Below are positions 10,297 to 59,918 of a stretch of DNA of 64,000 nt, one piece after another; position 1 is the stretch's first letter; every line of letters begins with the position of its first letter. The stretch comes from Chaetoderma sp. LZ-2023a (lineage: Eukaryota; Mollusca; Caudofoveata; Chaetodermatida; Chaetodermatidae). The notes under the pieces are model-generated. The model saw nothing but the letters and a program-made list of their open reading frames with translations, had not been told where the DNA came from and did not search any database. Where the stretch lies: the NCBI GenBank assembly GCA_034401795.1, contig CM067363.1, positions 25,787,688-25,851,687 of the forward strand, read 5' to 3'. The translations under genes and the position numbers were made by a program.

Positions 10297-10690
10297 AATG
10301 GAAGGGACCAGTTTTAGCCATGCCACATCCATCTCTAGCTAAGCTCCACCAACATTTCGATTGCGTCGGAATCGATCGATCTCTACACTTTATGAATCTC
10401 GATTTTCAGAAAGTAAGCTGCTGAATAATTAGTCACTAATTTTCTGAGTGATGTTGCTGCCTATGGCAGCAACTGGACCCGGTCAAATTGGTTTCAAAAT
10501 ATTCAACAGCATGTTTATTACATACTATAGCCATACATTTCGTACAACAACGCGTAGTTCGTCTTCAATTTATCACGTGCGCGATGCACCTAGTTATGTC
10601 ATTCATGGCATAATTCATTATGATGTTATCCTACACATCACACAGTTGATTATGACGGCATGTGATTGATGGAACAACTGGACAGCTTCC
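10297..10690 (+). mobile_element. Family A MITE, copy 1 (reference description)
   Basis: Family A, written in plus orientation here, starts GGACCTTTCCAGTTTTAGC, continues through CCCCGCCCATCTCTAGCTAA, GCTCCACCCACACCTCGC, a GATCGATCGATC run and AATTTCCAGAAAACTATACA, then has a central palindrome TTGAATATTTTGAAACTAAT..TTGACTGGGCGCTGTTGCTG with its inverse, then ACATACAATTCGTACAACAA, several TGACGTCA or TGATGTCAT sites, and ends AAACTGGAAAGGTCC. In this copy the centre is GTTGCTGCCTATGGCAGCAAC (about 10451-10471) and the arms are diverged. It adjoins long repeat H, as the copy at 51.5-51.8 kb also does. Confidence 0.85.
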
Positions 10691-11349
10691 TTGCCGTCAA
10701 GAGATAAGTGAGTATCACAGCTTGGATACGTAATATGTTCGATCATGTGAAGGTGTGTGAAGAGTAGCCAACATACACAGCAAACTAACAGTTAGTGCCT
10801 AACTAAACCTGGACGAAAGCAAAGTGAAGTCACCATTTGAACTCGAAACGCTGAATTCGAAAACTCCTTTGCAATTTAAGAAATATAATGTTGAATATTT
10901 TGAAGCTAATTTAACTGAAAGCTATGGCTACTATGGCAGCAACATACTCTTGTCAACTTGTTTTCAAACTAGTCGAGTGCCTACCTGTATGGTTATTTTG
11001 TAAATGAGATTCCGTGAATTCCTGCTTCAGGGTAGGTTGGGAGTGGGGTCAATGTCTAATAACACATAAGTGGATCACATACTATCATATCCAATGTTAC
11101 ATAGACGAACATGCACGAATAAACAGTAGGTGATATTATGTGCACAACACAGACCAGGTGATTTTGCACACAAATGTGTAGGGCTTACACGGTTGTACAT
11201 ATCTTTTCGGTTCAACGAGGCCAGGGTGATTCTCTACGAAAGAAACTAGAAACATTCCTGCTAACGGCAATCGGATTTAACATATTGAATCACATAGCTG
11301 AATTCGATAACTAGTATATTGCAAATTGTGAAACAATACTTCATGACGG

Positions 11350-12178: not shown

Positions 12179-12324
12179 TAGGTTCGTTATCACATAAGCG
12201 AGTATGTCTCCCATTGCATAGCATTTGTTTAAACAATTACATATTATTTTATATCCAAACGGTATAATAATAAAGTCTAGCGCTACTGACGCGCATCCCG
12301 GGCAGAAAAGTAATACGCCAATGG

Positions 12325-12660
12325 GCCTTTCTAATTTATCCTTCACCCATATGACGATCATCAATCTACGTGACGTGTATGATGAGGTCATAATCAATGA
12401 CGTCATGGCTGACGTAGACAGGTTCGTCACGAACGCATAATTGATAACGGATTAAGCCTTGTTGTACGAATTGTATATATTTACTGTCTAATAATCATGC
12501 TGTTGACTATATTGAAACCAATTTGACTGGGCGCTGTTGCTGGCCAGGCGGCAACAGCACGCAGTCAAGTTAGTTTTAAAATATTCAGCAGCCTCCCTGT
12601 ACAGTTTTCTGGAAATTGATAGTCATGGCATTCAGGGATCGATGGATCCCTGGCATTCGA
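12325..12660 (-). mobile_element. Family A MITE, copy 2
   Basis: In reverse orientation: a decayed start (GCCTTTCTAATTTATCC), two good CRE-like sites (GTGACGTG, AATGACGTCATGG near 12398), the central GACTGGGCGCTGTTGCTGGC with inverse, then GATCGATGGATCCCTGGCAT. The terminal GGAAAGGTCC is lost. Confidence 0.8.
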
Positions 12661-17490: not shown

Positions 17491-17494
17491 ATGC

Positions 17495-18810: not shown

Positions 18811-18892
18811 TGTGCTGAATATTTTGAAAACAATTTAATGGAACTTGTTGGTGGCTGGGCCACCAACAACTTTCATACAAATTGTATTCAAA
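18811..18892. repeat. Palindromic core related to family A
   Basis: CTGAATATTTTGAAAACAAT, then GGAACTTGTTGGTGGCTGGG, then CCACCAACAACTTTCATACA, ending TCAAATTATTC. An inner 10-bp stem TTGTTGGTGG/CCACCAACAA sits within degraded outer arms. A left-half-like piece also lies at 18490-18540. Confidence 0.65.
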
Positions 18893-19006
18893 TTATTCTA
18901 CATATCCAGAGTTAATCCCCATGGAGAACGTCGTCTGCAGAAAATCAGCAGATAGACGGTTATAGAAAGGTATTTAGGCGTATATGTATCGAGGTTACTG
19001 TATGCA

Positions 19007-20045
19007 TTAGACATCTGTGCTGCGGTTCCATAACAGACTGTCATCAACAACTACTTCAGGTTTCTTAGAAGCAGAAACTTGTCCATACTTAACCTTCATT
19101 AGAATAGATATAATACTGAAAATCAAAAAAAGAAGTATGCATTCAACGGTCAGCAACCAAACAAACCACATGGGCGTATGGTTTTCGAAGAGATACCCTA
19201 TAAGAAGTAGGTTGACTATGGCGCCAATACCTCCAGATATAAGAAACAAGGAGGTAATATGTCCATCGACTTTCATAATCCTGATTTCTGCCCAAGCAAA
19301 GCTTGCTCCAAACATGCTCGCTATGCCCAGACCTATCAATACAGAAGCTGCCCACAAAAATGCTGGACTGTGAGCCAAAAAGCTCAGCAACATTTAAGTT
19401 ATTAATAAACATATACGGTCAATTAAAATCATTTTCCAAGGAGAGAGAACGTTTGCAATCAGTATAGACATAAGACGTGAGACTGCGAATGAACCCCAGC
19501 AGACAGACATCAAGTTTGCTCCGTCTGATTTCGACATGTTTCCATATTCGACAACAAATGCAGCCATGAACATAACACACATATCTCCTATGTTCATATA
19601 AAAAAGAAGAACAGTGACAACAGAACCAAGTACACGATCTTGCTGAAGAGGGTAAGTTTTCCTTGTCCTCGCTCGTCATGTTCTTCTTCCCGGTCTCTGT
19701 TCCATTTGCTATGTCTTTTATTTAAAAAATACAGATATATAAAGGGAAACGATGCAGTTATAGCTATAAGGCCACATATTAGACATCTAAAATATACCAT
19801 TGTTTCTGGCTGCTGGTTTAGCTCAACGTCCCTACTCCTGGCAAGCTGAAGTGCTCCCGAACTGTTAATCGAATCGTTGATGAAGATGTAACTATTTGTG
19901 ACGTTTGTGTTGTTCGACTTCTCCAGCAGGAATGGCTCCGTGATAAGTGGCCCCACCAGACCGCCAATTGCAAAAAGAAAATAAATTGCCTGCATATACG
20001 GACCAACTTCCTTTCCCCAAATCAGCATACATACAGCGATAACAG
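19007..20045 (-). pseudogene. NaGLT1/MFSD4B-like MFS sugar transporter pseudogene 1, exon 2 (C-terminal part)
   Basis: Minus-strand exon whose acceptor (TTCTTTATTGTAG, then CTGTT) lies at 20045/20046. It encodes the middle and C-terminal half of a major facilitator with the NaGLT1-like signature FLFAIGGLVGPLITEPFL, a glycosylatable loop (NNTNVTN), a transmembrane segment CLICGLIAITASFPFIYLYF, a charged loop KWNRDREEEHDERG, and further helices ending near MWFVWLLTVECILLFLIFSI and the tail SLLWNRSTDV, TAA. Lesions: one base lost in a T run at about 19603 (LFFFFI, then the frame resumes at MNIGDMCVMF) and an in-frame TAA at 19394-19396 between LLIT and MLLSFL. The family members carry glucose or related solutes; no function is expected here. 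A paralogue lies at 45.1-46.3 kb. Confidence 0.88.
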
Positions 20046-20186
20046 CTACAATAAAGAAGACCAAAATTAAATATTTTAAAACGAGCGAAAATAAGTATGT
20101 AGCCTGACTTGGTTTACTGCGCAATAGAAAACAAACAGGTATAACAGAATCACGTAATCATGCACATTTTTTTATTTTTGTTATTT

Positions 20187-22724: not shown

Positions 22725-22902
22725 CCCAATGCGCATGTCTCGAATTCCTGATGCATTGGGCGTTTCCATTTCAGCTATGCTCGCACATCTTTAGGTAAGC
22801 TCCACCCACGACTCGCTCGCGATCTTGAACTCCCCGACGATCAATTTCCAGAGAACTATACAGGTAAGCTGTTGAATATGTTAAAACTAGTTTAAAGGAC
22901 AA
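22725..22902 (+). mobile_element. Family A MITE, copy 5, left part (interrupted)
   Basis: CCATTTCAGCTATGCTC, then GGTAAGCTCCACCCACGACT and AGAGAACTATACAGGTAAGC, up to AAAACTAGTTTA inside the left arm of the central palindrome, where another element begins. A small outer palindrome CCAATGCG..CGCATTGG-like precedes it. Confidence 0.85.
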
Positions 22903-24523
22903 TTCCGGGATTGGTAAAAGTGTATTTTATTTGAAAGACTATTATATGACTAACATATTGGATCCTAAATAAAAACAATAGACAAATAATATGAGTAATT
23001 ATACCATCGTTAACATGGGATTATCTTATCCCCCGGGCGGCGCCATTTTCTTGCAACGAGAGCGAGATTTCACGAGATCCTGACGTCATACCCGCACCAA
23101 CGCTATCTTTGCCGAGCACGACGGCTGTACAGTAACTATGCATATGCATGGAAGCCTAACATGTGCTAATTTGTAATCGTTAGAACATTGTCCAGTTAAG
23201 CTAGTTATTTTTTCAAGTAATTCTAGTATCCGAAGTCGGTGGGGAATCGTTAACCCATAGACCGATGAAGCATAGATTCCATTTTCTCTATCCTATCAGA
23301 ATGTGTTCATTTTGGTAACCATGCCACTGTAAGTCATTACTGTGCACGACAGCAACACGTTTCAGAAACCTTTTTTTCAAAATATACCCCGGAACTATCT
23401 CTGTAAGTAGGCTATTATGCATTTTACACCATGCGATAAGGGCTAAATGAAGTGGTACACTTCACATGTGCGTATTGTCAAATTACTCAGCCGACTTAAG
23501 ATACCGTCGTAGAGCGTGTCGCAGGCCGTGTAAATGTATATTCCAAGAAAACTTATGATAATATTGCCGGAACCACAGAACCGATTGTAATAATTCTGAC
23601 ACCTACCTGTAGCTGCAAATTCGAAGATATATCCAATGCTAGGGATGTTTGAATCGGCCTAGTGGTTGAAAAGATACACTCTGCGGGGAAAAGTAAGCCA
23701 GCAAACTTTCAAACACAAATTTCAGAATGCGCTCTATCCATCATCCCATATCAGAATGAGTATTACAGCTACAATGACAGAATTTGCTGTGCTGAAGCGT
23801 TATAATGTTATCACGTAACGGGAAAAATTTCATCAATATATCTTACTTATTGATATTACTACAACTTGCCGGGAAATATTGATCGGCGATGAAAATTCCC
23901 AGATTTTATGTCGAAATGTTAATTCATTTGGTGATATCTCTGGCAATATTCACGTGAGCAAAATTATAATTGGTCAGGCAAATAGCCATTTCTTTCAGCT
24001 TTAAGCACACTCCAATTTACTGACAATACGCAAAGATAATGTCTGCGAGACAAAAGCCATCTCATGCTGAATTTTACCCAAAAAGGATAACATATTTTCA
24101 GATCGTATTTTAGATGAATAATTTGTTTATATATTCCAGTCTTTTGGACCTCTTGTCCGATATTAACATCCATTATATCATTTTAATCCCGAGGTCGGCA
24201 CCTATTTAGAGATTCAAGAATCATTGGAATCGCTTCCGCGGTTCGTTTGCTATTATCATTTACGCATACTTCCTTAAAATATATACCCGCAGCTATTGGC
24301 CTCTCTCCCCCAGTCAGCAATAGAGGTGGCGCGGGCCTGGCGTAGCTAGACGTGATAAAATGGCAGCGCCCTGATGTTTGAAAAAATTGTCAATTTTACC
24401 GACTTTATCTAGCGATATTTGGAGGCGCTATTTCTACCAGGTTATTATTCTGGCGCAATTTCATTAAACATGTAATAATATTTCAAATAAACCACACTTT
24501 TTATCATCCCGGAATTGTCCTTT
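22903..24523. mobile_element. Non-autonomous TIR DNA transposon, about 1.6 kb, nested in family A
   Basis: The left end AGGACAATTCCGGGAT and right end ATCCCGGAATTGTCCT are perfect 16-bp inverted repeats. TTAA (or TTTAA) is present on both flanks. Subterminal segments are also inverted (GCGGCGCCATTTT near 23040 and AAAATGGCAGCGCC near 24358). No open frame longer than about 70 codons exists, so transposase must be supplied elsewhere. The TTAA target would fit a piggyBac-like mobiliser, although the ends do not begin with the usual CCC; a TA target cannot be excluded. Confidence 0.85.
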
Positions 24524-24845
24524 AACGGGGTGATGTTGCTGCCTACAGCACGTTTACGCTATGCCCCGCCAATCACTAGCTAGCTCCACCCACACTTCGC
24601 CTTGTTGGGATTGATCGATCCCCGAATGCCTATGGCAGCAACAGGGCCGAGTCAAAATAGTTTCAAAATATTCAACAGCATGTTTATTACGTAGCAGTGG
24701 CATGCAAATCGTACAACATGTCTGACTATTAAGAGTTAAAGACGGGCCATATCGAATCATTTATGACGCAATGAGTATGATGCCATCTTACACGTCGATT
24801 AGCTGATTATGATGTCATATGACGTCAGATTGATAGATGGATACT
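24524..24845 (+). mobile_element. Family A MITE, copy 5, right part, with rearranged centre
   Basis: Resumes with GGGGTGATGTTGCTGCCTA, which continues the palindrome cut at 22902. A short left-end piece (TTTACGCTATGCCCCGCCAA to GATCGATCCCCGAA) is inserted at the hairpin tip before TGCCTATGGCAGCAACAGGG. The CRE arm ends TATGATGTCATATGACGTCA near 24823. Confidence 0.82.
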
Positions 24846-25450
24846 CAGGTCACAATACTTCGTTGCATATCAAAATCTGCAAACACGTTATGATACAGTT
24901 GGTGCAATATATGCGCCACATTGACAGACACATTTGTCCTAATGCCCTAATATCCACCAGTTTCTGGCTCAAGTATATATCTAAGGAAACGTGTAGGAAT
25001 GGACAAAGTATCAGGTCAAGCCAAAATGGTTGTTCTTTCGTTCGCTCGCCGAACTCTAGGCTGAATGGCGTTGTTATTAGACGGATACGCTTTGATCTAA
25101 TTTAATCGTATACGCATGTGCTAAGAAACTACTTCCCGTGAAACAAAGACAATGTTGGATGGGGATCAGATCAATCAATCAATTATATGACGTCATAATG
25201 ATTGCGTCACGTGTTAGCTAATATCACAGTTATAATTACTTGTAGTTCAGTAATAAAAATCGAGGTGTCCGTCATGAGCGTATACAGATTGTATGTCTTG
25301 GCTGAATTTCCAAGTTAATATTCATTCAGTTTGATATGTTGCAACTAAGTGGACTGATTGATAACTGGTGGAGCCAAAGGCAGCAACAACACCCAGCAAA
25401 TTATCCAACAGCTTACCTACATAATAACCTTGAATTTGGGAGTCTGGGAA
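24846..25450. other. Mostly unassigned, with a weak family A piece
   Basis: GGCAGCAACAACACCCAGCA followed by CCAACAGCTTACC at 25379-25420 is a small family A fragment. The rest, including the plus frame 24809-25105, shows no motif. Confidence 0.45.
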
Positions 25451-25459
25451 GTCAGGGTT

Positions 25460-25625
25460 CAAAATACGTATTGAAATCATCATATGTTAGGATTCATTCG
25501 TTTCATTACATCTAGGCACACCATTTACGCTTCTAAAAGTATACGATTTTTTCAATTTTTGTTTTCAAGCATTTGGTGTGAATCTGCCCCTTTAATAGAG
25601 TTGAACACCATGATTCATATAGTTT
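25460..25625. mobile_element. Family E MITE, half copy
   Basis: TTGAAATCATCATATGTTAG, then GCTTCTAAAAGTATACGATT, and the end GGTGTGAATCTGCCCCTTTA match the right half of family E (compare 12060-12178). Confidence 0.75.
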
Positions 25626-28884: not shown

Positions 28885-30165
28885 AGACGCGCGCATACAC
28901 GCGCACGCGCACGTACACATGCACGCAAACACGCGTGCACGCGCACTCCCACAAGTACACAGTTGCGTACACACGCACATGCACGAGTGCACATACACAC
29001 GCAATGCCTCGCGCATTACCTGATCCATCCCAGTGATTGCTGCATGTGTCCGTCTCGCCGAGCGTATCCGTCGTCATGTTCCACTCATATATTTATACAT
29101 GAGATGTATGCATATTCATGATTGCTATATAAATACAGGTGTCAACGTCTTGCTTGTTATTTTGAAAACAATTTCGACATCGTCCTGTCACTGCTACAGA
29201 CTTTCAACTTTCAACATAAGCGGCAAGTGTCATAGTTTGCTCTTAGGCGCATTGAATAGATAATAACGCGTTCTGTTTCCCTAGGCTGTGACAGTTGTAA
29301 TAACATTTTTGCATACTTGTGTCGGTTATTATTGCTTAATTGGGTTCGCTTTCACTAAATACGGAACCCCGTAAGGGACATGTGTAAAGAATTCCGATCT
29401 AAACTATTTCGTGCACACGATATACTATTTCGTGAGCACAAATCATTATTTCGTGTCCATGGTATATTATTTCGGCCGCAAGCATTATATGGTATATCGA
29501 GTGCGTGAAATAATAGTTCGCAAACTCGAAATAATATATTTTAAAATGTGTCTTCGCACATGTTCCTTGGTGGGTGCCGTACACTAAGAGCGTTATATTG
29601 ATAGCAATTTTTTTTTATGAACCTCACCCGATAACTAAGGAGGCTACACCATGCCCTGTAAAAAGCTCACCAGTGTACACCGATAATGCCTTAAATATAC
29701 GATGTCTAATTATATATTGGAGTCTAAGGCCGTGTTCTCTCCAGCGAGGTAATCAGGAATAACGCCATACGCCGCCAGTATGGCGTTATTCCTGATTAAG
29801 TCTCTGGTGAGAACACGGCCTAAGAATCTTACAGATTTTACGCGGTTAAGTGAATCTCATAGCGTCTACACAACGAGTAACCTACTAACTAACGCGCGAG
29901 TGAATAATTATACTCAGCGTAATATGCCTACATGTATGATTTTATCAGCACGACCGACATCCCGTTAGCCTTGAACGGATTACGTCACATTCATTTGATG
30001 CCCACTTCGTGTCAACACTTGATAAGAAGTGAACACATTACGTGCACTGTTTACATATTTATCTAGTGTGGACTGTGTTGTGTTTATTTCTGCTTACAGC
30101 TATTATGAGCTGCTGGTATTACATAAGAGGTTATGCGTGAACTGGCGTGAGGCAGGGCACGTACG
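28885..30165. repeat. Long dispersed repeat D, copy 2
   Basis: Collinear with 8998-10062 (GCCTCGCGCATTACCTGATC at about 29007, ACTATTTCGTGCACACGATA at about 29403, GTGTCTTCGCACATGTTCCT at about 29547, ACTTGATAAGAA at about 30017). The start is a CACGCG-rich purine-pyrimidine tract (28868-28950). It carries a hairpin MITE insertion at 29728-29820 that copy 1 lacks. Confidence 0.82.
29728..29820. mobile_element. 93-bp foldback MITE (family I, GGCCGTGTTCTC ends) with TAA duplication
   Basis: GGCCGTGTTCTCTCCAGCGA at the left is mirrored by TCTCTGGTGAGAACACGGCC at the right; the inner arms GGAATAACGCCATAC/GTATGGCGTTATTCC are perfect around the tip GCCGCCA. TAA flanks both sides (29725-29727 and 29821-29823), as expected for a PIF/Harbinger-type TWA target. 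Copy 1 of repeat D has no such sequence at the corresponding place (about 9770). Confidence 0.92.
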
Positions 30166-30924: not shown

Positions 30925-31020
30925 TGTATGTTGAACATTTTGAAACTAATTTGCCTGGAAGCTTTTGCTGCCTAGGGCAGCGTCCAGTCAACTTGTTTTC
31001 AAGATATTCAACAGCCGGCT
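30925..31020. repeat. Family A-related palindromic core
   Basis: TGTTGAACATTTTGAAACTA, TTGCCTGGAAGCTTTTGCTG, CCTAGGGCAGCGTCCAGTCA, ACTTGTTTTCAAGATATTCA, ACAGC. The right arm is shortened. Confidence 0.7.
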
Positions 31021-31274
31021 TGCAATCGTGCTTTTGATCTGAGATATTAGGATTTCAGGGTGTATTCGGTCACAATAAAAACACAATATATATAGGAGTT
31101 ACATTGTCACTTACATAAATAGTTATCTTACGATGTTCTTCAAAGTTAATTGCTATGTTTATCTACTTAGAAAGTGTTAATTTAATATGATTTTAATTAA
31201 TAGATACATTTTTAGCCAATCCTGCTTTCTATTAGCCATATCTCAAATTTACTAGCATTTGGCTAAGGGACCGT

Positions 31275-31800: not shown

Positions 31801-32049
31801 ATTAAACTAACTACTAAATACTAAATATGTGGCAAAATTGTATGGTTATAACGCGGAATAGCCACGCTCAAGAATATACGTTTAATAAGTAAGGTATGGC
31901 GCGACAGAGAGCGAATAATAATTGTAGCAATGTATCGGGGCAAAGCCAAGGTGTGTAATATGATCATGTATATATGTAGATAGCCTAATCTACGGAATTA
32001 CCTTAAGGTAATGCGAAATATTGTAGAGCAATATTCTAACAAGCTCGAG

Positions 32050-32155
32050 TCACGCATGACATAATTATCTATGACGTCATTCTACACGTCGTGTAGTAGA
32101 TTATGGCGTCATATGACGTCGTGCGATGAATGGATAAAGCGGAAAGGTCCTTTGT
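32050..32155 (+). mobile_element. Family A CRE arm fragment
   Basis: Contains TATGACGTCATTC (about 32068-32080), CGTCGTGTAGTAGATTATGG and CATATGACGTCGTG, and ends GCGGAAAGGTCC. If it belongs with 31590-31800, about 250 bases of unrelated sequence separate the halves. Confidence 0.8.
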
Positions 32156-36114: not shown

Positions 36115-36478
36115 GGAACCTTTCCAGTGTTAGCTAGACCCCGCCCATCCTCATTTAAGCTCCACCTACGCTTATCCCGTGTTTGCATCGATCGGAACGC
36201 CCTGCTTATACATTTCCAGAACACTATGCGGGTAACCTGCTTAATATGTTGACACTAATTTGACTGTGTGCTGTTGCTGCTCATGGCAGCAACAGCGCCC
36301 AGTCAAATTAGTTTCAAAATATTCAACAGAATGTTAATTCAATATTAGATAAACACTTCGTACACCAACGCTTGTCTTCCAGTATGCGTTCGTGACGTAC
36401 TTATCTACGACATTCGTAACGTCATTGATTATGACGTCAGCATACACATCAAATAGTTGATTATGACGTCATATACGG
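36115..36478 (+). mobile_element. Family A MITE, complete centre
   Basis: GAACCTTTCCAGTGTTAGCT start; centre GTGCTGTTGCTGCTCATGGC, AGCAACAGCGCCCAGTCAAA; arm with AACGTCATTGATTATGACGT, CAGCATACACATCAAATAGT and ATTATGACGTCATAT (two perfect TGACGTCA). The right terminus is lost. Confidence 0.92.
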
Positions 36479-36960
36479 GTTATCTCAAGTGTAAGTAGCC
36501 GACTTCTTTGAAATTGTGTTTGTAAGAATCGATAGAATCCTGTAAAGTGTAACCGCGATGTTAGAGAATGCCCGGGGGCTACGAATGACCATGATTTATC
36601 ATAGCATTGGGATATTATTTAAATAAAATCTTTAAAAAAGTAAACGTTATGTAGATGAGTGTCGGTATTCGGATACAGATCTGTATTCGAATATGTGTAT
36701 AAATACATAAATGAATATTCGAAACATTCGAAAATGTCAGATGACGGGCCAAATGGTGTTAGTCTGCTGCCAAGTTTCAAGTCATTTAGTTAAACAACTC
36801 TAGGAGAAAACCCAGTTTAAATGTGGATATCATTCATTTAATAAGCGAGGCACCTTTGGTAAAGAAAGGCCGATTTCTCGACAGTGATTTGAAGGATCCA
36901 ATATGGAATTTATCCGCGAGCCAAGCGTAACGTCCAACTTAGGGAAAATGGTGACACGAT
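36479..36960. other. No recognisable feature
   Basis: Contains a small GTATTCG/CGAATAC-like repeat (36660-36735) only. Confidence 0.4.
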
Positions 36961-37586: not shown

Positions 37587-37804
37587 CGGATTTTCGGACT
37601 TATGAGCATGAGGCTTAATGAATCGCTGTGTTTGTCCCTCATAAACAGTTGTCCGGAATAGCGAGATTTGCATGCGTGCGTATTGTCTTCTAACCACGAA
37701 ATTAACTCCACTTGTGTCCTGGCCAGCTTTCAGAATTCTTCCATATCGGTTGAGCAACGTGTTCAATTCATCATACTCAAATTCCTTAGACTGGACAGCT
37801 AATT

Positions 37805-38213
37805 CACCTTTCCAGAGTATCTATCCAGCACCTGACCTCGTATAACGTCATAATCAGCTCAGCGCGTGTATGCTGACGTCACATTCACTACGTTACAAAT
37901 GGTTCCATATAGACCTTCATCAAATCTCAAAAAGTCCGACACGTTGCATGAATTGTATGCATTTATAAGTCTTTGCTATTTAATAAACATGCTGTTTGAT
38001 TTTGAAACCAATTTGACTGGGCGCTGTTGCTGCCTTAGGCAGCAACAGCACCCGACCAAATTAGTTTCAAAATATTCAACAGCTTACCTGTGTAGATTTT
38101 TTGGAAATTGATGGTCAGCGAGTTCAGAGATCGATCGATACCAACACGAGCGAGGTGTAGGTGGAGCTTAGCTAGAGATGGGCGGGGCTTAGCTATACCG
38201 GAAAAGGTCCATT
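37805..38213 (-). mobile_element. Family A MITE, full length (CACCTTTCC subtype)
   Basis: Starts CACCTTTCCAGAGTATC and ends GGAAAAGGTCC. The centre GGGCGCTGTTGCTGCCTTAG, GCAGCAACAGCACCCGACCA is intact, followed by GATCGATCGATA. The first 45 bases (CAGCACCTGACCTCGTATAA) are shared with the copy at 47044, marking a subtype. Confidence 0.93.
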
Positions 38214-38746: not shown

Positions 38747-39021
38747 GGTTTCTTACTCTGGTAGTATATGGAAACGCATTAGCTTCAGATTACATAGTAA
38801 AAAACGACGCAATGTAGTTGTAATATAAATACTTTTTCTGGGTAACGCAATTCATATAACCGATTGCATCTATTTCCTCTGAGAAATTGGACACTTAATC
38901 ATACCGATAACGCGCTGTTTGTGTAGCGCATCCTTGCTCAAGCGCGCAGATTGCCTCCCAATATGTTATGTCTTCTATCTAGCGCGAACATGTGTGGCAT
39001 TGTAATCCTTTGTTGAGAATG

Positions 39022-39466
39022 GATGAATCCAGCTTTAGCTATGCCACACCCATCTCCAGCTAAGCTCCACCCACGTTGTGCAAGTGTTGAGATCGATCGA
39101 TGGCTGCACTCTCGGAATCTCAATTTCCAGAAAACTATGCCAGTGAGCTGTTGAATATTTTGAAACTAATTTGATCGGGTGCTCAATTTACGGGAAACTA
39201 TACAAGATACGTTGTTGAATATGTTGAAGCTAATTTCAGTGGGTGCTGGTGCAGCGCCCAGTCAAATTGGATTCAAAATATTCAATAACCTGCTTGTTAA
39301 ATAATAAAGACATATAATTCGTATCACAACGCGTATCCGCCATAAATCAAGCCTTCGTGACGTCAGTAGCTACGTCTTTCATGACGTCAGTGAATATGAC
39401 GTCATCCTACACTTCGCGTAGTTGATTATGACGTTATATGATTGCTGGGTAAACTAGAAAGGTGCA
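39022..39466 (+). mobile_element. Family A MITE, longest copy with a duplicated left arm
   Basis: The left palindrome arm occurs twice (TTGAATATTTTGAAACTAAT at 39152 and TTGAATATGTTGAAGCTAAT at 39214), separated by AATTTACGGGAAACTATACA. The right arm CAGCGCCCAGTCAAATTGGA follows. The CRE arm has perfect TGACGTCA at 39358-39365, 39382-39389 and 39397-39404. The end is AAACTAGAAAGGTGC. Confidence 0.92.
39358..39404. promoter_or_regulatory. Cluster of three perfect CRE (TGACGTCA) octamers in a family A copy
   Basis: TGACGTCA at 39358, 39382 and 39397, within 47 bases. This is the palindromic CREB/ATF recognition sequence. Whether any factor binds here is unknown. Confidence 0.7.
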
Positions 39467-39509
39467 TAGTGTCACGTTGCTGAATATTTTAAAACTAATA
39501 TCACTTGAC

Positions 39510-44526: not shown

Positions 44527-44689
44527 TAAATATAGTTACCTTGAAATATATTTTGTGAGAATTAAGTTTTTACAAATTCAAATAGATTCCATCAATTGTT
44601 AAAGTGGTTGGAGCTTTGGTAGAAATAGGCGGGTTGATAGATATATAGATTGATATATATATCAATAGAGGAATCCTGTTTTATATATG

Positions 44690-45075
44690 CCATGCCCATC
44701 TCTGGCTAAAACCAACCTACACTTCGCCCGTGTTCGGATCGATCTCTACCTGAACTGCCTGCGTATCAATTTCGAGAAAACTCTACAGGTAAGCTGCTGG
44801 GTATTTTGAAACCATAAGGTGGCTATGCTCTCTTGGTGACTATTGACTATCGCTGCAACAGCACCCGGTTAAATTAGTTTCAAAATATTCAACACTGAGA
44901 ATGTGTAATAAATAGTAAAAACATACAATTCGTCCAACCACGCTTTGTCCGCCATCAAGTAATTGATCGTGACGGACTTATCCACGCCAGGCATGACGTA
45001 GTTGATTATGACGTCATCCTGCACGTCACGTAGTTGATAATGACGTCACATTGATGGCTACACTGGAAAGATCTA
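44690..45075 (+). mobile_element. Family A MITE abutting transporter pseudogene 2
   Basis: CATGCCCATCTCTGGCTAAA start, disrupted palindrome (AAACCATAAGGTGGCTATGC replaces the left inner arm), right arm CAACAGCACCCGGTTAAATT. Perfect TGACGTCA at 45009-45016 and 45041-45048. It ends ACACTGGAAAGATCTA exactly where the downstream coding remnant has its stop codon (TAG on minus, 45073-45075). Confidence 0.9.
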
Positions 45076-46329
45076 GTACGCATCTGTGTCGCGGTTCCAT
45101 AACAGACTTTCATCAACAGCTACCTCAGGTCGGATACTCGTAGGAACTTGTCCATACTCAAACTTAGTTAGAATAGTTATAACACTGAAAGGCAGGACAC
45201 GAACTATGCATTCGCCCGTAATCAACCACACACACCACATGGGTGTATAGTTTCGAAGAGATGCCCTGTAAAAAGTGGATTGTTAACACTTCCAACACTT
45301 CCATAATATTGATCTCTGTCCATGCAGAGTTTGATGGGAATACACTCGCTATGCTAAGACGCACTAATGCGGAAGCTGCCCACAGAAATGCGGTTATATT
45401 TGCCAAAAAAGCATAGCAATAACAAAGTTACCAACAATGATATAGAGTCAAGCAAAATCATCTTCTAAGGAGAGAGAAGCTTGGCGATCAGTACAGACAG
45501 AAGACGTGAAACTGCGAAGGAACCCCAGTAAACAGACATCAAGCTGGCTCCGTCGGATTTCGACGTGTCTCCATATTCTACAACAGATGCAGCCATACAG
45601 ACTGAAAAGATATCCTCTACACTGATATACACCAGCAAGAACACTGATAATAAAACCAGGTATACGCCCTGTAGGTGGGTCTTAGAATACACCTTCCGTA
45701 TCCTCTGCGTGTCGTAAGAGGCGACTAAAGGCGGTAAGGGTGACGTAACCCTGACAGAAACCTTGAGTGCTGAAGACGGATGTTCCAGGCCGCACGGCGC
45801 ACTCTAATAAACCATGGATCCACGCACTTAACGCATATGATCATGTCGATAGTCACTTACAGGACTGGCGGTATGATCAGCGAACGAAAAGAAGAAGAAG
45901 AAACCAGGTATACGATCTTGCTAAACAAGCTAAGTTTTATTTATCCTTCCTCTTCGTGTTCATCATGTTTCTCTCTATTCCATTTGACATGCCCTTTATT
46001 GATAAAATACAGATACATAAAAGGAATCGAGGCTGTAACAGTTATAAGGCCACATATTTGAATTGCAAAATGTACCCTGGTTTCTGGGTGTTGGCTTAAC
46101 GGAATGTCCACGCCGTCAAGCTGTATGCTTTGAATCCTATCGAGTGGATTGTTGATACATTTGGAAGTATTTGTCTCGATAATTGTGCTGCTTGCATTAG
46201 ATGTATCCATTAGGAATGGCTCGGTGATTAGTGGTCCCATGAGACCGCCCACTGCAAACAGGAAACATATTACCTGCAAATATGGTCCGGCCTTCACTCC
46301 CCATATCACCGCACACGCCGCGTTAACGG
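45073..46329 (-). pseudogene. NaGLT1/MFSD4B-like MFS transporter pseudogene 2 (exon 2 equivalent)
   Basis: Minus-strand paralogue of 19007-20045. An acceptor (TCTATTTCAG, then CCGTT) lies at 46329/46330 at the homologous position. The reading frame has FLFAVGGLMGPLITEPFL, a loop with NASSTI, QICGLITVTASIPFMYLYFI, the charged loop KWNREKHDEHEEEG, then (after a 234-bp insertion) VYLVLLSVFLLVYISVEDIF and SVYWGSFAVSRLLSVLIAKL, an in-frame TAG at 45465-45467, LWAASALVRLSIASVFPS, and a C-terminal SLLWNRDTDAY stop. A deletion of about 60 bases removes a helix seen in pseudogene 1 between WTEINIM and YTHVVCV, and there is a frameshift near 45400. No exon 1 equivalent was found upstream. It is more degraded than pseudogene 1. 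Confidence 0.87.
45667..45900 (+). mobile_element. Retroposon insertion (SINE-like or truncated LINE tail) in pseudogene 2
   Basis: A 234-bp insert flanked by a perfect 14-bp duplication AAACCAGGTATACG (45653-45666 and 45901-45914). It contains a small hairpin phrase GTCGTAAGAGGCGAC and ends with ATCAGCGAACGAAAAGAAGA, AGAAG, an A-rich simple tail typical of target-primed integration. The uninterrupted counterpart (ACCAAGTACACGATCTTGCT) exists in pseudogene 1 near 19627. I see no convincing A and B boxes, so a tRNA-derived SINE is not proven; a 5'-truncated LINE 3' end is equally possible. Confidence 0.9.
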
Positions 46330-46464
46330 CTGAAATAGAACACATCGATATAGTAATCTGTTCTGTCACTCAAGTATATGACGTCATAATGACATACATT
46401 AATCGTTAGCTGGCGTCTCGATCTTAATGGTGCAGAGCTCAATCATAAACATGAAAAAGTTGCT

Positions 46465-46985
46465 TTTCCAGTCTATCCATCTATCCGCTGACGTCATATG
46501 ACGCCATAATCAACTACGTAACGTCTAGGATGACGTAACAATTAAATATGGCATGGATTACGCTATTTAGTCCGTCTTTGACGCATAACAGTCCGAGACG
46601 TTGTCCGAATTGTATGTCGTTACCATTTAATAAACAGTTTGTTAAATATTTTGAAACTAATTTGACTGGTCGCTTTTGACGCCATAGTTTAAATCAGCTA
46701 CGTGAAGTGTAGGATGATGTCTTAATTAATTATAGTATGAATGAGTCAATTTAGTCCGTCTTAAATGTCTCTACCATTTAATACGCATTCTGCTGGATAT
46801 GTTGAACCATAGGCAGCAATAGCACCCAGCCAATTTAGGTTTAAATATTCAACAGCTTACCTGTATAGTTTTCTTAAAATTGATAGCCAAGGAGTTTAGC
46901 GATCGATCCCAACACGGACGAAGATGTAGCTTAGGGGCGGTGGATCCTAGTTAGAGAAAGGCGGACCTTAGCTGGAAGGGTTCAT
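46465..46985 (-). mobile_element. Family A, two partial copies joined
   Basis: The first piece: TTTTCCAGTCTATCCATCTA, CGCTGACGTCATATGACGCC, CATTTAATAAACAGTTTGTT, TTTGACTGGTCGCTTTTGAC (46465-46690). The second: a repeat of the CRE arm (CAGCTACGTGAAGTGTAGGA) followed by the right half GGCAGCAATAGCACCCAGCC, GCGATCGATCCCAACACG and the end GCTGGAAGGGTTCATT. This looks like a recombinant or a partial tandem. Confidence 0.8.
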
Positions 46986-47043
46986 TGCATATAAAGAAGC
47001 TGTTTCTGGGGGTTTTTCAGTACAAAGATTAACTTACTTAATT

Positions 47044-47455
47044 CACCTTTCCAGAGTAGCCATCCAGCATCTGACCTCGTATGACGTCATAAGCAGCCAA
47101 GCACGTGTATGATGATGTCACAATCATTACGTCACAAAGGGTTCCATATAGACCGTCATCAAATCTCAAACAGTTCGACCCGTTGTATGAATTGTATGTC
47201 TTTGTAATTGTGTGCTATTTAATAAGCATGCTGATGAATATCTTGAAACTAATTTGACTGGGCGTTGTTGCTGCCTTTAGGCAGTAACAGCACCCAGTCA
47301 ACTTAGTTCCAACATATTCAACAGCTTACCCGTGTTGTTTTCTGGAAATTGATAGTCAGGGTGTTCAGAGATCGATCGATCACAACACGAGCGAGGTGTG
47401 GGTGGAGATTAGCTAGAGATGGGCGGGGCATAGCTAAACAATGGAAAGGTCCATT
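47044..47455 (-). mobile_element. Family A MITE, full length (CACCTTTCC subtype)
   Basis: Starts CACCTTTCCAGAGTAGCC and ends GGAAAGGTCCATT. The centre GGGCGTTGTTGCTGCCTTTA, GGCAGTAACAGCACCCAGTC is intact, as is GATCGATCGATCACAACACG. It is similar throughout to the copy at 37805. Confidence 0.93.
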
Positions 47456-50969: not shown

Positions 50970-51490
50970 ACAGACCCGTTCGTAAAATTATCTTCGTCTT
51001 ATGCGGCAAGGTAATTATGATACAGTCAAGCAACCACATATAGTGGTATTGGTGGTTCTGTATTTAAGGGTCTAGCTAAGAATAACGTTTAGGGTCGAAC
51101 TAAAAATTCCAGTTCCAAGGTCAGAGCGACCGTACTATTGATTGGATCTATTTCTAGTGTCAAATTAACTGGGATCATTGAGAAGGATTTTTCTATCAGT
51201 TCAAGCTTGTCAATAGGTTGGAGTTGTCATGAGCGGATAACCAAGGTTGGACTGATTTAGGCAATATGTAAAGGCCATTAATGGAACATTGACCCATGTA
51301 TGGCAACAGGCTAATCTGCAGACACGCGTAGTTCATATACACCCTAGCGCGACTAGTTCAACTCGCTGCTGTAAAAAGCCATCAGTTACATTAATCAGTG
51401 ACTGTCTCTGGCAGCCACACTCTGACCAACATTCGCACTAAAAGATACTTTAATAAGTGCTACCTTGAGGGCACTATGACAAGATCCTTG
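50970..51490. other. No recognisable feature
   Basis: GGTCTAGCTAAG/GGGTCGAACTA-like phrases recur at 51070-51100, but no family is recognised. Confidence 0.4.
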
Positions 51491-51494
51491 GGCA

Positions 51495-51815
51495 CCGTAA
51501 CTATCACACTCCGGAAAACTATACAAAGAAGTTGTTGAATATTTTACTTTGAAACTAACTTGATTGGACACTGTTGCTGCATATGGCAGCAACGGCGCCC
51601 AGTCACCTTAGTTTCAAAATATTCAACAGCATGTTTATTAAATAGTACAGACCTATTATGTGTACAACAACGCTGAGTCAGCCGTCAATTACGCATTCTT
51701 GATGAACTTACCTACGCCATTCATGACGTCATTAATTATGACGTCATCATACACGCCAGGTAGTTAACTATGGGGGCCATATGATTGATGGATAAACTGG
51801 AAAGATCAATTGCCC
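51495..51815 (+). mobile_element. Family A MITE next to repeat H copy 2
   Basis: Starts inside the left portion (CCGGAAAACTATACA), full centre CTGTTGCTGCATATGGCAGC, AACGGCGCCCAGTCAC, perfect TGACGTCA at 51724-51731 and 51739-51746, end AAACTGGAAAGATC. Its position relative to repeat H is the same as that of the copy at 10297-10690. Confidence 0.9.
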
Positions 51816-52770
51816 TCATTAGACAGCTGGGTATCAAAAGTTGCTTTGATACATTATATGTTCGGTTATGTGAGTGGTGTGTGAACAGTAGCATACGTAC
51901 ACAGCAAACATACAGTTAGTACATAGCGAAACCATGACGAAAACAAAGTTTTGATTTACACATTTGAACACGAAATCGCTGAATTCGAAAATTCATTTTC
52001 AATTTAACATACATAATGATGTATAGTATGATGCTAATATAAATAGAAGATGTTGGCACCATGACAACAACAGATTCCTGTCAAATTATTTTCGAAATAT
52101 TCGGCTGCCTACCTATATGGCCATTTAATAAATGAGATACGGTGCATTCTTGGTTCGGGGTGGCGGGTTAACGTCTAGTAACGTATAAGTGGATCGCATA
52201 CTTTCATGTCCAATGCTACACAGACGAGCATGCAATAATAAACATTAGGTGATAGTATATGCATACCGGGGACCAGGGTATTTTGTACAATAAGGGTAGG
52301 GGCTAGATGTGTGCACATATTTTATCGGTGAAACTAGGATAGGGTCATTCCTTAATTAGGAAAGAAATTATACAACTGCCTGCTAACGACAATCGGATTT
52401 AAGACGTTGAATCATAATCGCGTAAATCGAAAATACATGTACAATTTTACAACTAGTACATTGGACATTTTAAAACAATAAACGCATGGTTCAGCCGGTT
52501 ACTAGTAAGTTGTGACTGTGTCATTGATTGCCATAAACTAGCAGTATTGACTGATGCAGATTTGAGTGAAAGCTATTCCCGCTTTATCAGGAAGATTGGA
52601 ATTATGGTTTTATCACATAAGCAAGCTTGTATTCCATTGCGTATCACTCATTCAAACAGTCCACACCAGTCTGGAGAAGGACTACTAGAAATAATCAAAC
52701 AAGGTGGCAATACTCAAACAAGGTGACAAGTTTAAGGTGGCACTCGACACATTATCATAAATGCGTATCA
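51815..52770. repeat. Long dispersed repeat H, copy 2 (uninterrupted)
   Basis: Collinear with 10690-14320 but contiguous. Landmarks: ACACAGCAAACATACAGTTA (about 51899), CACGAAATCGCTGAATTCGA (about 51968), GACTGTGTCATTGATTGCCA (about 52514), TATCACATAAGCAAGCTTGT (about 52612) and GTGGCACTCGACACATTATC (about 52736). It contains a palindromic core variant at 52050-52130 (GATTCCTGTCAAATTATTTT). No coding potential. Confidence 0.8.
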
Positions 52771-54145
52771 CAGAGCGTCCTAGCCTAACTCAGTAAAAAG
52801 ATATTCCTGTGCTAGATGGCTTACTGTAGATGAAAGGTGTTATCCGGGTGTGCGTGATATGGGAGAGTGAGCACTCTGCGGACAGATGAACGCAATTATT
52901 TATTTAGGAGAAACATCTTCTAACTTGAAGTATATTAGGATAAGAAGATATATGCGGAGTATCTGTAGTTTCACAAAACATCACTGGCTGCCACAAGTTG
53001 AGAAGATGTGTGTTCAAGTAATGCAGTTCTCTGATTGGTAGTAAGAAATTAAACAGGAGCATACATTTCAGGTGGGCATACTTGGATGCATCAAATAGTT
53101 CCATAATGGAATTCTAGGAAAATAGTAGGTTCACAAAAAAGTCGGCTAAGACGGCTTGATGCTAGCCTTTTAATTACGTACCGGGTATACTCGTATGCTA
53201 GTAACATACTCGTACATAAAATCACGGTTTGTTGCAGGCCCTGCGGCATCGAGAGTTTGTCCTAACACCTTTTTAAATCACGTGTGTTTAGCATAGCACA
53301 TGACGATCAGAAACTATCTCCCTTTTATAGGTGCTGGAGAGGAAGGGCACGTTTCTTAAGTTAAATACACTAATCAGTGTGCGAGTGATGCTGCAGGAAC
53401 CTGATCGCGGGGCATGAATTCCACGCGGAGAAAACGTGCTGGAAGCTGTAGAGGATAGATAGGGTTGACCGCGGTAATAGCATGGTCGGTGGTGGAAACA
53501 TACGCAATTTCCTTCCCTCCTCGTTGCCTCTCTCCACTCGTGCAAAAACTTACTCGTTACCAATAACAGACTGAAATAAAAATCCAGCCTAGATATGGCA
53601 TGATGGCGTTTGCTGGGGGCTGATGGAATTTTGTCGCACGTGTGTCTACTGCCATTTGTCAAAACTCTCAGTCCTTAAGCCTGTATCCTACTAGGGGACC
53701 ATTTACTTGGGAGTTGATGCACGTACGTGCCAGTGGTTGAGCCCGTGAAATACTCGTTAGGTGGGAGAGGATTTGCCCACACGCGCTCGCAAGTTGTAGC
53801 CGCCTCTAAAGTTTGGTAGGTGGTGCTTGTTGAGTTTTGAACATGTGCAAAAGTCTGTCGATGTTGGCAAGCACACGCTGACAGTCTCACGCCAAACTCA
53901 ACTCACTCGCAAAGTGTGAGAAGGGGAGCGTGGTGTGTGACGCAATAGTTCGCGTATACATTTTTTTTTAAATCAGCAGAGTGTTTATTAAAGTGTAAGT
54001 TCATCAACCACAAACAACTCGTACATTTTGGTGACGGACGTTTCGGGTTTCAAGACGAAGCTGATCGGGACATCGGCTAACGTGTGACGTATTTGACGTC
54101 ATATGCTGCAGTGACTGATCTGATCCCTGTATTATCCTAAACATT
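52771..54145. other. 1.4 kb without recognised features
   Basis: The 124-residue minus frame at 53288-53662 and the 71-residue minus frame at 53675-53890 have no motif that I can place; they may be random or transposon-derived. No repeat family matched. Confidence 0.4.
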
Positions 54146-54894: not shown

Positions 54895-55010
54895 CCTAAT
54901 ACCGCATGTTGAATATTTTGAAACTAATTTAACTGGAAACTGTTGCTGCCTAGGCAGGAACTGTTCCAGGCAAATTAGATTCGACAAATTCAACATAGTC
55001 GTGTGTCTGC
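54895..55010. repeat. Palindromic core, GGAAACTG tip variant
   Basis: GCATGTTGAATATTTTGAAA, TTTAACTGGAAACTGTTGCT, GCCTAGGCAGGAACTGTTCC, AGGCAAATTAGATTCGACAA. A right-arm scrap of the same type is at 55265-55310. Confidence 0.7.
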
Positions 55011-56388: not shown

Positions 56389-56544
56389 TGAGACAAAAAT
56401 AAGTCAATAATAATGTCTTAAGACGATTGAGTCACCTGGTATTATCGGACAGTCGTCGGTAGATATTTATCCGCGAAATATATATGTACGATGTTTGACA
56501 ACAATAGCATGGAATGGATTATTTCACATTCGGTTATCATAACT

Positions 56545-56875
56545 CACCTTTCCAGTTTATCCATCGATCAGCTGACGTCACATGACGTCATAATTAACTA
56601 AGCTACGTGTGTGATGACGTCATAATCATGACGTCGTGGATGAATCGAAATAGTCCGTCTGTACCGCTTAATAGTCCGGCATGTTGTACGAATTGTATGG
56701 CTTTACCATTTAATAAACAGTATGTCGAATACTTTTAAACCTAATTTGTCTGGACGGTGTTGCTGCCATAGGAAACAACTGCCCGCAGTCAAATTGGTTT
56801 CAAAATAGTCAACAGCCTACTTGTATACTTTTCTGGAGGTTGATAGTCCGAGAGTTGGAAAGGTCCACTTCACGG
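56545..56875 (-). mobile_element. Family A MITE, CRE-rich copy
   Basis: Starts CTCACCTTTCCAGTTTATCC and ends GAGTTGGAAAGGTCC (the GATCGATC block is deleted). Perfect TGACGTCA at 56573-56580, 56583-56590 and 56615-56622. Centre TCTGGACGGTGTTGCTGCCA, TAGGAAACAACTGCCCGCAG. Confidence 0.92.
56573..56622. promoter_or_regulatory. Cluster of three perfect CRE (TGACGTCA) octamers
   Basis: TGACGTCA at 56573, 56583 and 56615 in a family A copy. A fourth partial site (ATGACGTCG) is at about 56629. Confidence 0.7.
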
Positions 56876-59117: not shown

Positions 59118-59609
59118 TCCAAAGACAACATGCTGGAGCCATTTTGGTCACCGTGGTTGTAACATGGTTAAGCAGATGTTAGGAACACTATATCGCCCAT
59201 AATGAATGGCCGTACGGGTGGGCCAGATGCATCAACAATGCACATCTAATTCATGCAGATGATACCATCTTAAAACCCCTCAAATATGTTGACAACCCTA
59301 CCCTGGATCAACACCTCCCTATAGATGATGTGGGTAAAGCCACACCTATCGCACTTCGTAAACTCCATCTGGTTAAATGTCGATTCAGTGATACCATTAT
59401 CAGAAGTACTGCAAAGTGCAGAGCCAATTTAAGAGAAGAAACAGTTGCGCCCAAATAGTATAGGCACACCGTATGCTTACGTCGCTACTTCTATCAGAAC
59501 AATGTGATGAAGAGGCCACATAATCTCAAATCGTCCACCAAGCTGAATGAGACGATGCCAAACTACGCTTAGTGAGACTCCTAATGCCAGACCCTGAATT
59601 GAGAAACCC

Positions 59610-59918
59610 AGTTTCTCAATCAATCATATGACGTCATAATCAACTACGTGGCGTGTAAGCTTATGTCATAATCAAATACGCCATGAACTGTATGTTGTTG
59701 CTATTTATTAAACATGCTTTTGTATGTTTTGAAACTAATAGGCAGCAACAGCATCCAGTCAAATTATTTTCAAAATATTCAACAGCTTACCTGGATAGTT
59801 TTTTAGACATCGACATTCTATGTGCTCAGGAATGGATCGATCATAACACGAGTGATGTGTGGGTAGGGCTCTGCTAAAGATGGGCGGGACATTGTTAAAC
59901 CGGATTCCTCCATTAACT
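59610..59918 (-). mobile_element. Family A MITE, left palindrome arm deleted
   Basis: CAGTTTCTCAATCAATCATA, TGACGTCATAATCAACTACG (perfect CRE at 59629-59636), TTTTGAAACTAATAGGCAGC, AACAGCATCCAGTCAAATTA, GGATCGATCATAACACG, GGGCGGGACATTGTTAAACC. Confidence 0.88.

What the first reader, a model, noticed from the sequence alone, without database searches (positions are those of the whole stretch)
39022..39466. A MITE family that carries clusters of perfect CRE (TGACGTCA) sites
One arm of family A repeatedly contains TGACGTCA: three copies within 47 bases at 39358-39404, three at 56573-56622, two each at 36430-36470, 45009-45048 and 51724-51746, and one at 59629. Other copies have one-base variants (TGATGTCAT, TGACGCCAT, TGACGTTAT) at the same positions, so the ancestral element probably had three to four sites. 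This is the palindromic recognition sequence of CREB/ATF bZIP factors. With roughly 30 copies per 64 kb, the family would scatter many potential bZIP sites across the genome. Alternatively the octamers could be transposase-binding repeats; both uses are possible.
Basis: partly seen in the sequence, partly recalled or inferred. Interest (0 to 1): 0.75.

Follow-up and report, generated by a model that had tools for sequence, protein, structure and literature searches.

The report
Abundant MITE carrying clustered CRE sites
A very common, old, protein-less mobile DNA element in this animal genome brought with it a cluster of perfect CRE sites (the docking sequence of CREB/ATF/Jun regulators), so the genome has a large excess of such sites, but the sites are decaying much like the rest of the element and nothing yet shows that they are used.

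Summary
The window has 25 TGACGTCA (0.75 expected), 22 inside family A hits. The host genome (2.44 Gb, unnamed, perhaps a mollusc) has 398,896 perfect octamers; the same letters read backwards give 41,418. In 20 stretches (195 kb) picked without regard to sequence, 39 octamers stand against 2.3 expected, 23 in family A, which covers about 6.6% of that sample. The consensus of 88 right arms has three octamers in subfamily A and two in B, all in one arm, about 30-90 bp from one end. So the sites are ancestral cargo that was amplified. They are not specially preserved: octamer CpGs are kept 394/474 against 1001/1236 for other right-arm CpGs; whole octamers rank mid-table among 8-mers; a small excess at non-CpG octamer bases matches that of the element's palindrome. 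Best reading: an old MITE-like family carrying a former regulatory (less likely transposase-binding) array, spread passively. TSD, superfamily, autonomous partner and bZIP binding were not established. MITE-driven amplification of transcription-factor sites is known in plants: a new animal member of a known kind.

The parts
39019..39470 (+). The named family A copy (two profile pieces, 39019-39183 and 39182-39470; internal 64-bp tandem duplication 39119-39247)
   Evidence: nhmmer hits; TRF
39019..39183 (+). Left arm of the element and start of the core, beginning ATGGA...TCCAG (imperfect terminal inverted repeat); no octamer
39211..39289 (+). Central palindrome (38-nt arms, 82% complementary, 3 nt apart here); the core is among the best conserved parts of the family
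   Evidence: the repeat finder I1; conservation; single-strand fold of another copy (17492), z -10
39300..39470 (+). Right arm with the octamer cluster, ending CTAGAAAGGTGCAT (terminal inverted repeat partner)
39358..39365 (.). TGACGTCA, private change at an ancestral GTGACG half-site
39382..39389 (.). TGACGTCA, ancestral site 1 (profile column 316)
39397..39404 (.). TGACGTCA, ancestral site 2 (profile column 331)
39429..39436 (+). TGACGTTA, decayed ancestral site 3 (profile column 363)
36116..36498 (+). family A copy, octamers at 36432 and 36464
44665..45078 (+). family A copy, octamers at 45009 and 45041
51483..51815 (+). family A copy, octamers at 51724 and 51739
56538..56857 (-). family A copy (subfamily B), octamers at 56573, 56583 and 56615
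59596..59687 (-). family A right arm, octamer at 59629
12316..12650 (-). family A copy, octamer at 12398
46458..46687 (-). family A right arm (subfamily B), octamer at 46489
37800..38213 (-). family A copy (subfamily B), octamer at 37874; 86% identical to 47039-47455
47039..47455 (-). partner of that pair, octamer at 47082 (a different site)
32045..32155 (+). family A right-arm fragment, octamer at 32072
24627..24843 (+). family A right-arm fragment, octamer at 24820
25173..25460 (-). diverged family A copy (89 bits), octamer at 25188
53973..54115 (+). weak family A match (E 1.3e-6), octamer at 54094
46364..46422 (-). very weak family A match (E 0.0032), octamer at 46379

Best explanation
Family A is an old, non-autonomous, MITE-like DNA element of about 410 bp with short imperfect terminal inverted repeats, a central palindrome (arms of about 44 nt in the copy folded) and an asymmetric right arm. 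Its ancestor carried two or three ATGACGTCAT sites about 30-90 bp from the right end, plus half-sites. Amplification to an estimated 10^5 or more copies seeded the genome with CRE octamers, which have since decayed at roughly the element's own rate. Shown: presence in the consensus, genome-wide excess, decay at about background rate. Inferred: the array was originally useful to the element, most likely as a bZIP-responsive promoter or enhancer of its autonomous parent (about 0.45) rather than a transposase-binding array (about 0.3). Today most copies are passive cargo: potential, mostly unselected bZIP sites.
For: Window excess 25 vs 0.75, 22 of 25 in family A hits. Consensus of 88 right arms (40 unselected, 48 picked by similarity) has TGACGTCA at columns 316, 331, 363 (subfamily A, 64 arms) or 331, 363 (B, 24 arms). 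Genome 398,896 octamers vs 41,418 for the reversed letters. 195 kb chosen without regard to sequence: 39 vs 2.28 expected, third of 256 palindromic 8-mers; family A covers 6.6% (bootstrap 3.6-10.1%) and holds 23 of 39. Decay: octamer CpG 394/474 vs other right-arm CpG 1001/1236, difference 0.022 (-0.013 to 0.056); in the 40 unselected arms octamer minus palindrome is 0.006 (-0.026 to 0.035) at non-CpG and 0.047 (-0.06 to 0.157) at CpG columns; whole octamers intact in 27/63, 24/62 and 17/61 subfamily A copies, ranks 169, 209, 295 of 378 8-mers. Anchored samples keep CG in 53/100 and 58/100 octamers vs 68/100 at one control CpG. Another palindrome of the same element, GATCGATC, is also enriched, 18 vs 1.9. 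The host has bZIP-like stretches at 9 places, one Jun-like.
Against: Non-CpG octamer columns are better kept than the rest of the right arm: 1285/1421 vs 6911/8149 in all 88 (difference 0.056, 0.032-0.081) and 526/589 vs 2944/3647 in the 40 unselected (0.086, 0.043-0.128), and better than the left arm (0.055, 0.019-0.093), so past or present constraint on the array is possible. Among 8-mers that contain CpG the octamers stand above the median: ranks 25, 39, 77 of 113 (subfamily A), 15 and 19 of 92 (B). Sixteen of 39 octamers in the unselected sample lie outside family A hits, against 2.3 expected in all; some look by eye like diverged relatives, others lie in other repeats, so one family does not explain everything. 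Decayed forms such as TGATGTCA can still bind CREB, more weakly (PMC1796609, passages). No autonomous parent, transcript or binding data were seen, so the original role is inference. CREB itself was not identified.
Confidence: 0.72

Rival explanations
1. The octamers are subterminal binding repeats for the transposase (or an accessory factor) of the autonomous parent, with no link to bZIP proteins.
For: Several sites close to one end at spacings of 15 and 32 columns, about 30-90 bp from the terminus; non-CpG octamer bases are kept as well as the palindrome and better than the left arm; subfamilies A and B share sites 2 and 3.
Against: Only one arm carries full sites; the left-arm consensus has none. 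TGACGTCA also sits at matching places in copies of two other repeats (L042/L043; window 23081/L048). The 86%-identical pair retains one octamer each, at different sites.
Confidence: 0.3
2. The host has put the elements to work: many copies are CREB/ATF/Jun-bound enhancers or promoters, or act together as a sink for these factors.
For: Scale: 398,896 octamers; 5 of 20 window right arms hold 2-3 octamers; bZIP-like genes in the host; CREB1 binds perfect CREs in mouse IAP LTRs when unmethylated (PMC9729108, passages); better-kept non-CpG octamer columns than the rest of the right arm.
Against: No clear excess preservation of octamer CpGs over other CpGs, and less in one anchored comparison; octamer intactness mid-table; octamer number does not follow copy age (rho 0.20, p 0.40, 20 copies). 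These averages cannot exclude a small used minority.
Confidence: 0.1
3. Chance or low-complexity artefact.
For: None found in the controls run.
Against: Shuffle and Markov controls; exact anchored pattern counts of 5,679, 2,642 and 9,428 with reversed controls 0.
Confidence: 0.01

Closest known systems
E2F-site amplification by MITEs and other transposons in Brassicaceae (Henaff et al. 2014, as described in the review PMC12595863; passages of the review seen; the 2014 paper itself not seen)
   Same: MITEs hold most genomic copies of one transcription-factor motif; most lie far from genes and may dilute the factor
   Different: Plant, E2F motif, several superfamilies, binding to E2Fa reported; here an animal, CRE octamer, largely one family, no binding data
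DcTourist_15 of carrot spreading LHY/RVE sites (PMC13102513; passages seen)
   Same: A single MITE family with probably ancestral sites, lost copy by copy through mutation
   Different: 1,064 copies, DAP-seq and yeast one-hybrid support; here an estimated 10^5 or more copies and sequence evidence only
CRE in IAP LTRs of mouse bound by CREB1 (PMC9729108; passages seen)
   Same: Perfect TGACGTCA inside a mobile element; methylation of its CpG blocks binding there
   Different: LTR retrotransposon promoter with a tested CRE; family A is a protein-less DNA-type element and untested
MITE-like repeat of Lucina pectinata haemoglobin genes (PMC4732748; passages seen)
   Same: Clam, MITE-like, folds into a stable secondary structure, no target-site duplication found
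   Different: Sequence not compared here; no CRE clusters mentioned in the passages seen
HINE / DINE-1 non-autonomous Helentrons (PMC4067079; passages seen)
   Same: Short inverted repeats near the ends, palindromes, no TSD established
   Different: HINE palindromes are 5-10 bp near the 3' end with T-rich insertion sites; family A has a long central palindrome and no T-run common to its flanks

Membership tests
MITE | Short, non-coding, high copy number | tested here: met
   about 410 columns; 20 right arms in 64 kb, 18 in 195 kb unselected; no ORF of 110 aa or more over the copy at 39019-39470
MITE | Terminal inverted repeats | tested here: met
   AATGGACCTTTCCAG / CTGGAAAGGTCCATT, imperfect; a second 5' end type reads AATGGAGGAATCCAG
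MITE | Target-site duplication | tested here: inconclusive
   No convincing TSD of 3-10 bp at a common offset in 15 window copies, nor of 3-9 bp in 44 usable of the 45 copies printed out of 48 full ones. AT stands on both sides at one offset in 26 of 44, but AT is its own complement, so this cannot be told from the inverted repeat. A nested A-in-A insertion (L046; same site in L041) shows AT/ATT on both sides, possibly one event
MITE | Autonomous partner with shared ends | not tested
   no genome-wide search was made; 7 split copies were listed, junctions of 4 were printed, none taken for one
Non-autonomous Helentron (HINE) | subTIRs plus short 3' hairpin and insertion between Ts | tested here: not met
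   Long palindrome is central, not near the 3' end; bases outside the ends vary (by eye)
Transposon-borne amplification of a TF motif | Motif present in the family consensus | tested here: met
   88 right arms, 48 of them picked by similarity
Transposon-borne amplification of a TF motif | Motif enriched genome-wide, largely because of the family | tested here: met
   39 vs 2.28 in 195 kb, 23 of 39 in family A (bootstrap 27-80%); genome count 398,896
Transposon-borne amplification of a TF motif | Copies bound by the factor | not testable with these tools
   no chromatin or binding data
Functional CRE under selection | Octamer preserved better than comparable sequence of the element | tested here: inconclusive
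   CpG columns: no clear excess, 394/474 vs 1001/1236. Non-CpG columns: excess over the right and left arms, none over the palindrome. Ranks 169, 209, 295 of 378 8-mers; above the median among CpG-containing ones in 4 of 5 cases

The most novel reading that the evidence does not exclude
Chiefly one animal transposon lineage has multiplied the genome's perfect CREs roughly ten- to fourteenfold, to about 400,000, so that bZIP (CREB/ATF/Jun) regulation in this species runs against a vast decoy pool with a minority of copies recruited as enhancers; and CRE sites were independently favoured by several unrelated mobile elements of the same genome as a way to be transcribed.
Probability: 0.12. Interest if true: 0.78.

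Novelty: new member of a known kind. Interest (0 to 1): 0.5.

Why it matters
It gives an animal, perhaps molluscan, case of transposon-driven inflation of one transcription-factor motif at a scale (about one perfect CRE per 6 kb) where factor titration and network rewiring become testable. CREB is a classic subject of mollusc memory research (recalled, no call), so anyone predicting CREB targets by motif in this genome could be misled unless family A is masked.

Tried and rejected
Rejected: chance. Not borne out as a general claim: octamers specially preserved. Non-CpG octamer bases do show an excess over the rest of the right arm: 294/332 vs 1328/1700 in the window, 526/589 vs 2944/3647 in the 40 unselected arms and 1285/1421 vs 6911/8149 in all 88. 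I discount it because the palindrome is kept equally well, not because it vanishes.

Led nowhere: TSD search at fixed offsets; exact palindrome or right-arm patterns in viral contigs and genome contigs, 0 matches each; protein search with an MFS exon, none; tRNA and Rfam scans of the window, none; Pfam on 7 ORFs, one match, MFS_1 below its cut-off. Literature searches for a CRE-bearing MITE (8 of 10 allowed) showed none among the listed titles and abstracts; listings were capped and subscription work is not covered. Passages of seven papers were seen; none was read whole. The apparent split copy in L002 is by eye two separate copies, not an autonomous element.

Weak points: the CG/TG/CA tallies were copied by hand from the first 100 listed places, all on contig C1, out of 5,679, 2,642 and 9,428. 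Only one control CpG was obtained; the control may include related families of another age. A second control (AGCTATGCCC...) was asked and never answered; nor were non-CpG controls; GATCGATC count. 48 of the 88 right arms come from loci picked by similarity to the named copy, which favours octamers; the other 40 are 20 from the window and 20 from the unselected stretches. Copies below 55 bits or with fewer than 90 letters in columns 270-400 were dropped before these counts, as were hits overlapping a better one by more than 20 bases. Consensus letters were not left-one-out. The scaled copy and octamer numbers rest on 20 stretches, 5 of them without family A.

Full report
Observation. TGACGTCA occurs 25 times in the window against 0.75 in dinucleotide shuffles. 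A profile built from 14 hand-chosen copies gives 98 hits at E<=0.01, of which 57 do not overlap; 22 of the 25 octamers lie in such hits. Twenty right arms hold 19 octamers: two arms with three, three with two, seven with one, eight with none; shuffles of the same arms give 0.17.

Anatomy. The element is about 410 columns long. It starts with AATGGACCTTTCCAG or AATGGAGGAATCCAG and ends with CTGGAAAGGTCCATT. Left arm: no octamer, two overlapping GATCGATC palindromes. Centre: a palindrome; the copy at 17492 folds as single-stranded DNA with arms of about 44 paired bases at -36.5 kcal/mol against a mean of -12.2 for shuffles. By eye it also occurs with other arms or none. Right arm of subfamily A: GTGACG half-site, ACGTCA half-site, then ATGACGTCAT at columns 316, 331 and 363, with a further ACGTCACG between the last two; the element ends near column 402, so the full sites lie about 30-90 bp from that end. 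Subfamily B has full sites at 331 and 363 only. In the named copy the octamer at 39358 is a private change at the half-site, 39382 and 39397 are sites 1 and 2, and site 3 reads TGACGTTA.

Genome scale. The host assembly has 2.44 Gb in 2,753 contigs; the window is C5:25787688-25851687. It holds 398,896 TGACGTCA; the same letters read backwards, also a palindrome but without CpG, occur 41,418 times. Twenty 10-kb stretches at round-number positions (195,126 readable bases) hold 39 octamers against 2.28 from a first-order Markov model, third of 256 palindromic 8-mers after two TA repeats. Scaled, the Markov figure is about 28,500 for the genome, so the excess is roughly tenfold (against the reversed letters) to fourteenfold. 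Twenty-three of the 39 are in family A (bootstrap over stretches 27-80%), which covers 6.6% of the sample (3.6-10.1%); scaled up this is about 225,000 right arms (100,000-366,000). Five of the 20 stretches have no family A match. The sampled density scales to about 487,000 octamers (282,000-732,000), in line with the exact count. The other 16 octamers are themselves above the 2.28 expected.

Are the octamers preserved? Against subfamily consensus, 88 right arms (40 unselected, 48 picked by similarity) keep 394 of 474 octamer CpG positions and 1001 of 1236 other right-arm CpG positions; the difference is 0.022 (-0.013 to 0.056). The 40 unselected give 163/196 and 399/505, difference 0.041 (-0.016 to 0.098). 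Non-CpG positions: 1285 of 1421 against 6911 of 8149, difference 0.056 (0.032-0.081); unselected 526/589 against 2944/3647, difference 0.086 (0.043-0.128). This excess is real, but the palindrome is kept as well: 5849/6443 in all 88, and in the unselected arms octamer minus palindrome is 0.006 (-0.026 to 0.035), octamer minus left arm 0.055 (0.019-0.093). Whole octamers are intact in 27 of 63, 24 of 62 and 17 of 61 subfamily A copies, ranks 169, 209 and 295 of 378 8-mers, and in 10/24 and 9/24 subfamily B copies, ranks 107 and 133 of 370. The median 8-mer of subfamily A is intact in 41%, the median CpG-containing one in 33%; among the latter the octamers rank 25, 39 and 77 of 113 (B: 15 and 19 of 92), so four of five stand above that median. 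In the 21 unselected subfamily A arms the ranks are 126, 195 and 285 of 386. Counting genome-wide with fixed 22-base flanks: 5,679 places for site 3, 2,642 for site 2, 9,428 for a control CpG elsewhere in the element; in the first 100 listed of each the dinucleotide is CG in 53, 58 and 68 (Fisher p 0.043 and 0.19 singly, 0.046 pooled), with CpG transitions in 42, 36 and 24. Octamer CpGs thus erode about as fast as other CpGs, or faster in this comparison. Octamer number does not follow copy age in the window (rho 0.20, p 0.40, n 20).

What it most likely is. The anatomy and copy number are those of a MITE-like DNA element, but no convincing TSD of 3 bp or more was found. A nested insertion of one family A element in another, seen at the same internal place in L041 and L046, has AT or ATT on both sides; the two may be one event copied. 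Superfamily is left open, and no autonomous parent was seen or searched for genome-wide. A one-armed cluster near a terminus is what a promoter remnant would look like; this is inference. Two other repeats carry TGACGTCA at matching positions in their copies: L042/L043 (84% identical over 2.5 kb) and window 22892-24525 with L048 (90% over 1.6 kb, inverted ends of 57 bp), which fits a host-factor motif somewhat better than one transposase's private motif. The host has nine bZIP-like places over the Pfam cut-off; one open frame matches Jun bZIP structures best, another looks like ATF4 by eye (recalled). CREB itself was not identified; the search does not join exons.

Host. Unnamed. Of 20 relatives of a retroelement frame in the window, the one with an organism name is from Ostrea edulis (61% over 73%). 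A mollusc is a guess from that and from overall character, not shown.

Known context. Amplification of E2F sites by Brassicaceae MITEs (PMC12595863, passages) and of LHY sites by carrot DcTourist_15 (PMC13102513, passages) is the same kind of phenomenon. CREB1-bound CREs in a mobile element are known from mouse IAP LTRs (PMC9729108, passages). Eight library searches listed no paper on a CRE-bearing MITE by title or abstract.

Verdict.

Noticed in passing
window 22892-24525; L048 20-1636: A second repeat of about 1.63 kb with inverted ends of 57 bp, abutting a family A left arm (22757-22893), 90% identical to a copy in L048; it carries TGACGTCA at 23081.
   Followed up: partly
L042 1-2500; L043 4366-6852: Repeat 84% identical over 2.5 kb with TGACGTCA at the same place in both copies.
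   Followed up: partly
L041 7945-8453; L046 801-1165: Family A element nested inside another family A copy at the same internal site and orientation on two contigs; hot spot or composite that moved as a unit.
   Followed up: partly
window 10452-11292 and 51572-52414: 855-column alignment, 74.5% identical, spanning family A right arms and a core-only copy, so not all copies are independent insertions.
   Followed up: partly
window 30929-31021, 54907-54998, 18813-18902: The central palindrome alone, by eye without family A arms: perhaps an element of its own.
   Followed up: no
window 19007-20157 and 45465-46369: Two duplicated MFS-transporter-like exon sets on the minus strand (71-72% identical DNA; one exon with a Pfam MFS_1 match below cut-off).
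   Followed up: no
window 9568-9642 and 29403-29474: Related 21-bp tandem repeats ACTATTTCGTGNACACGATAT inside a 77%-identical repeat.
   Followed up: no
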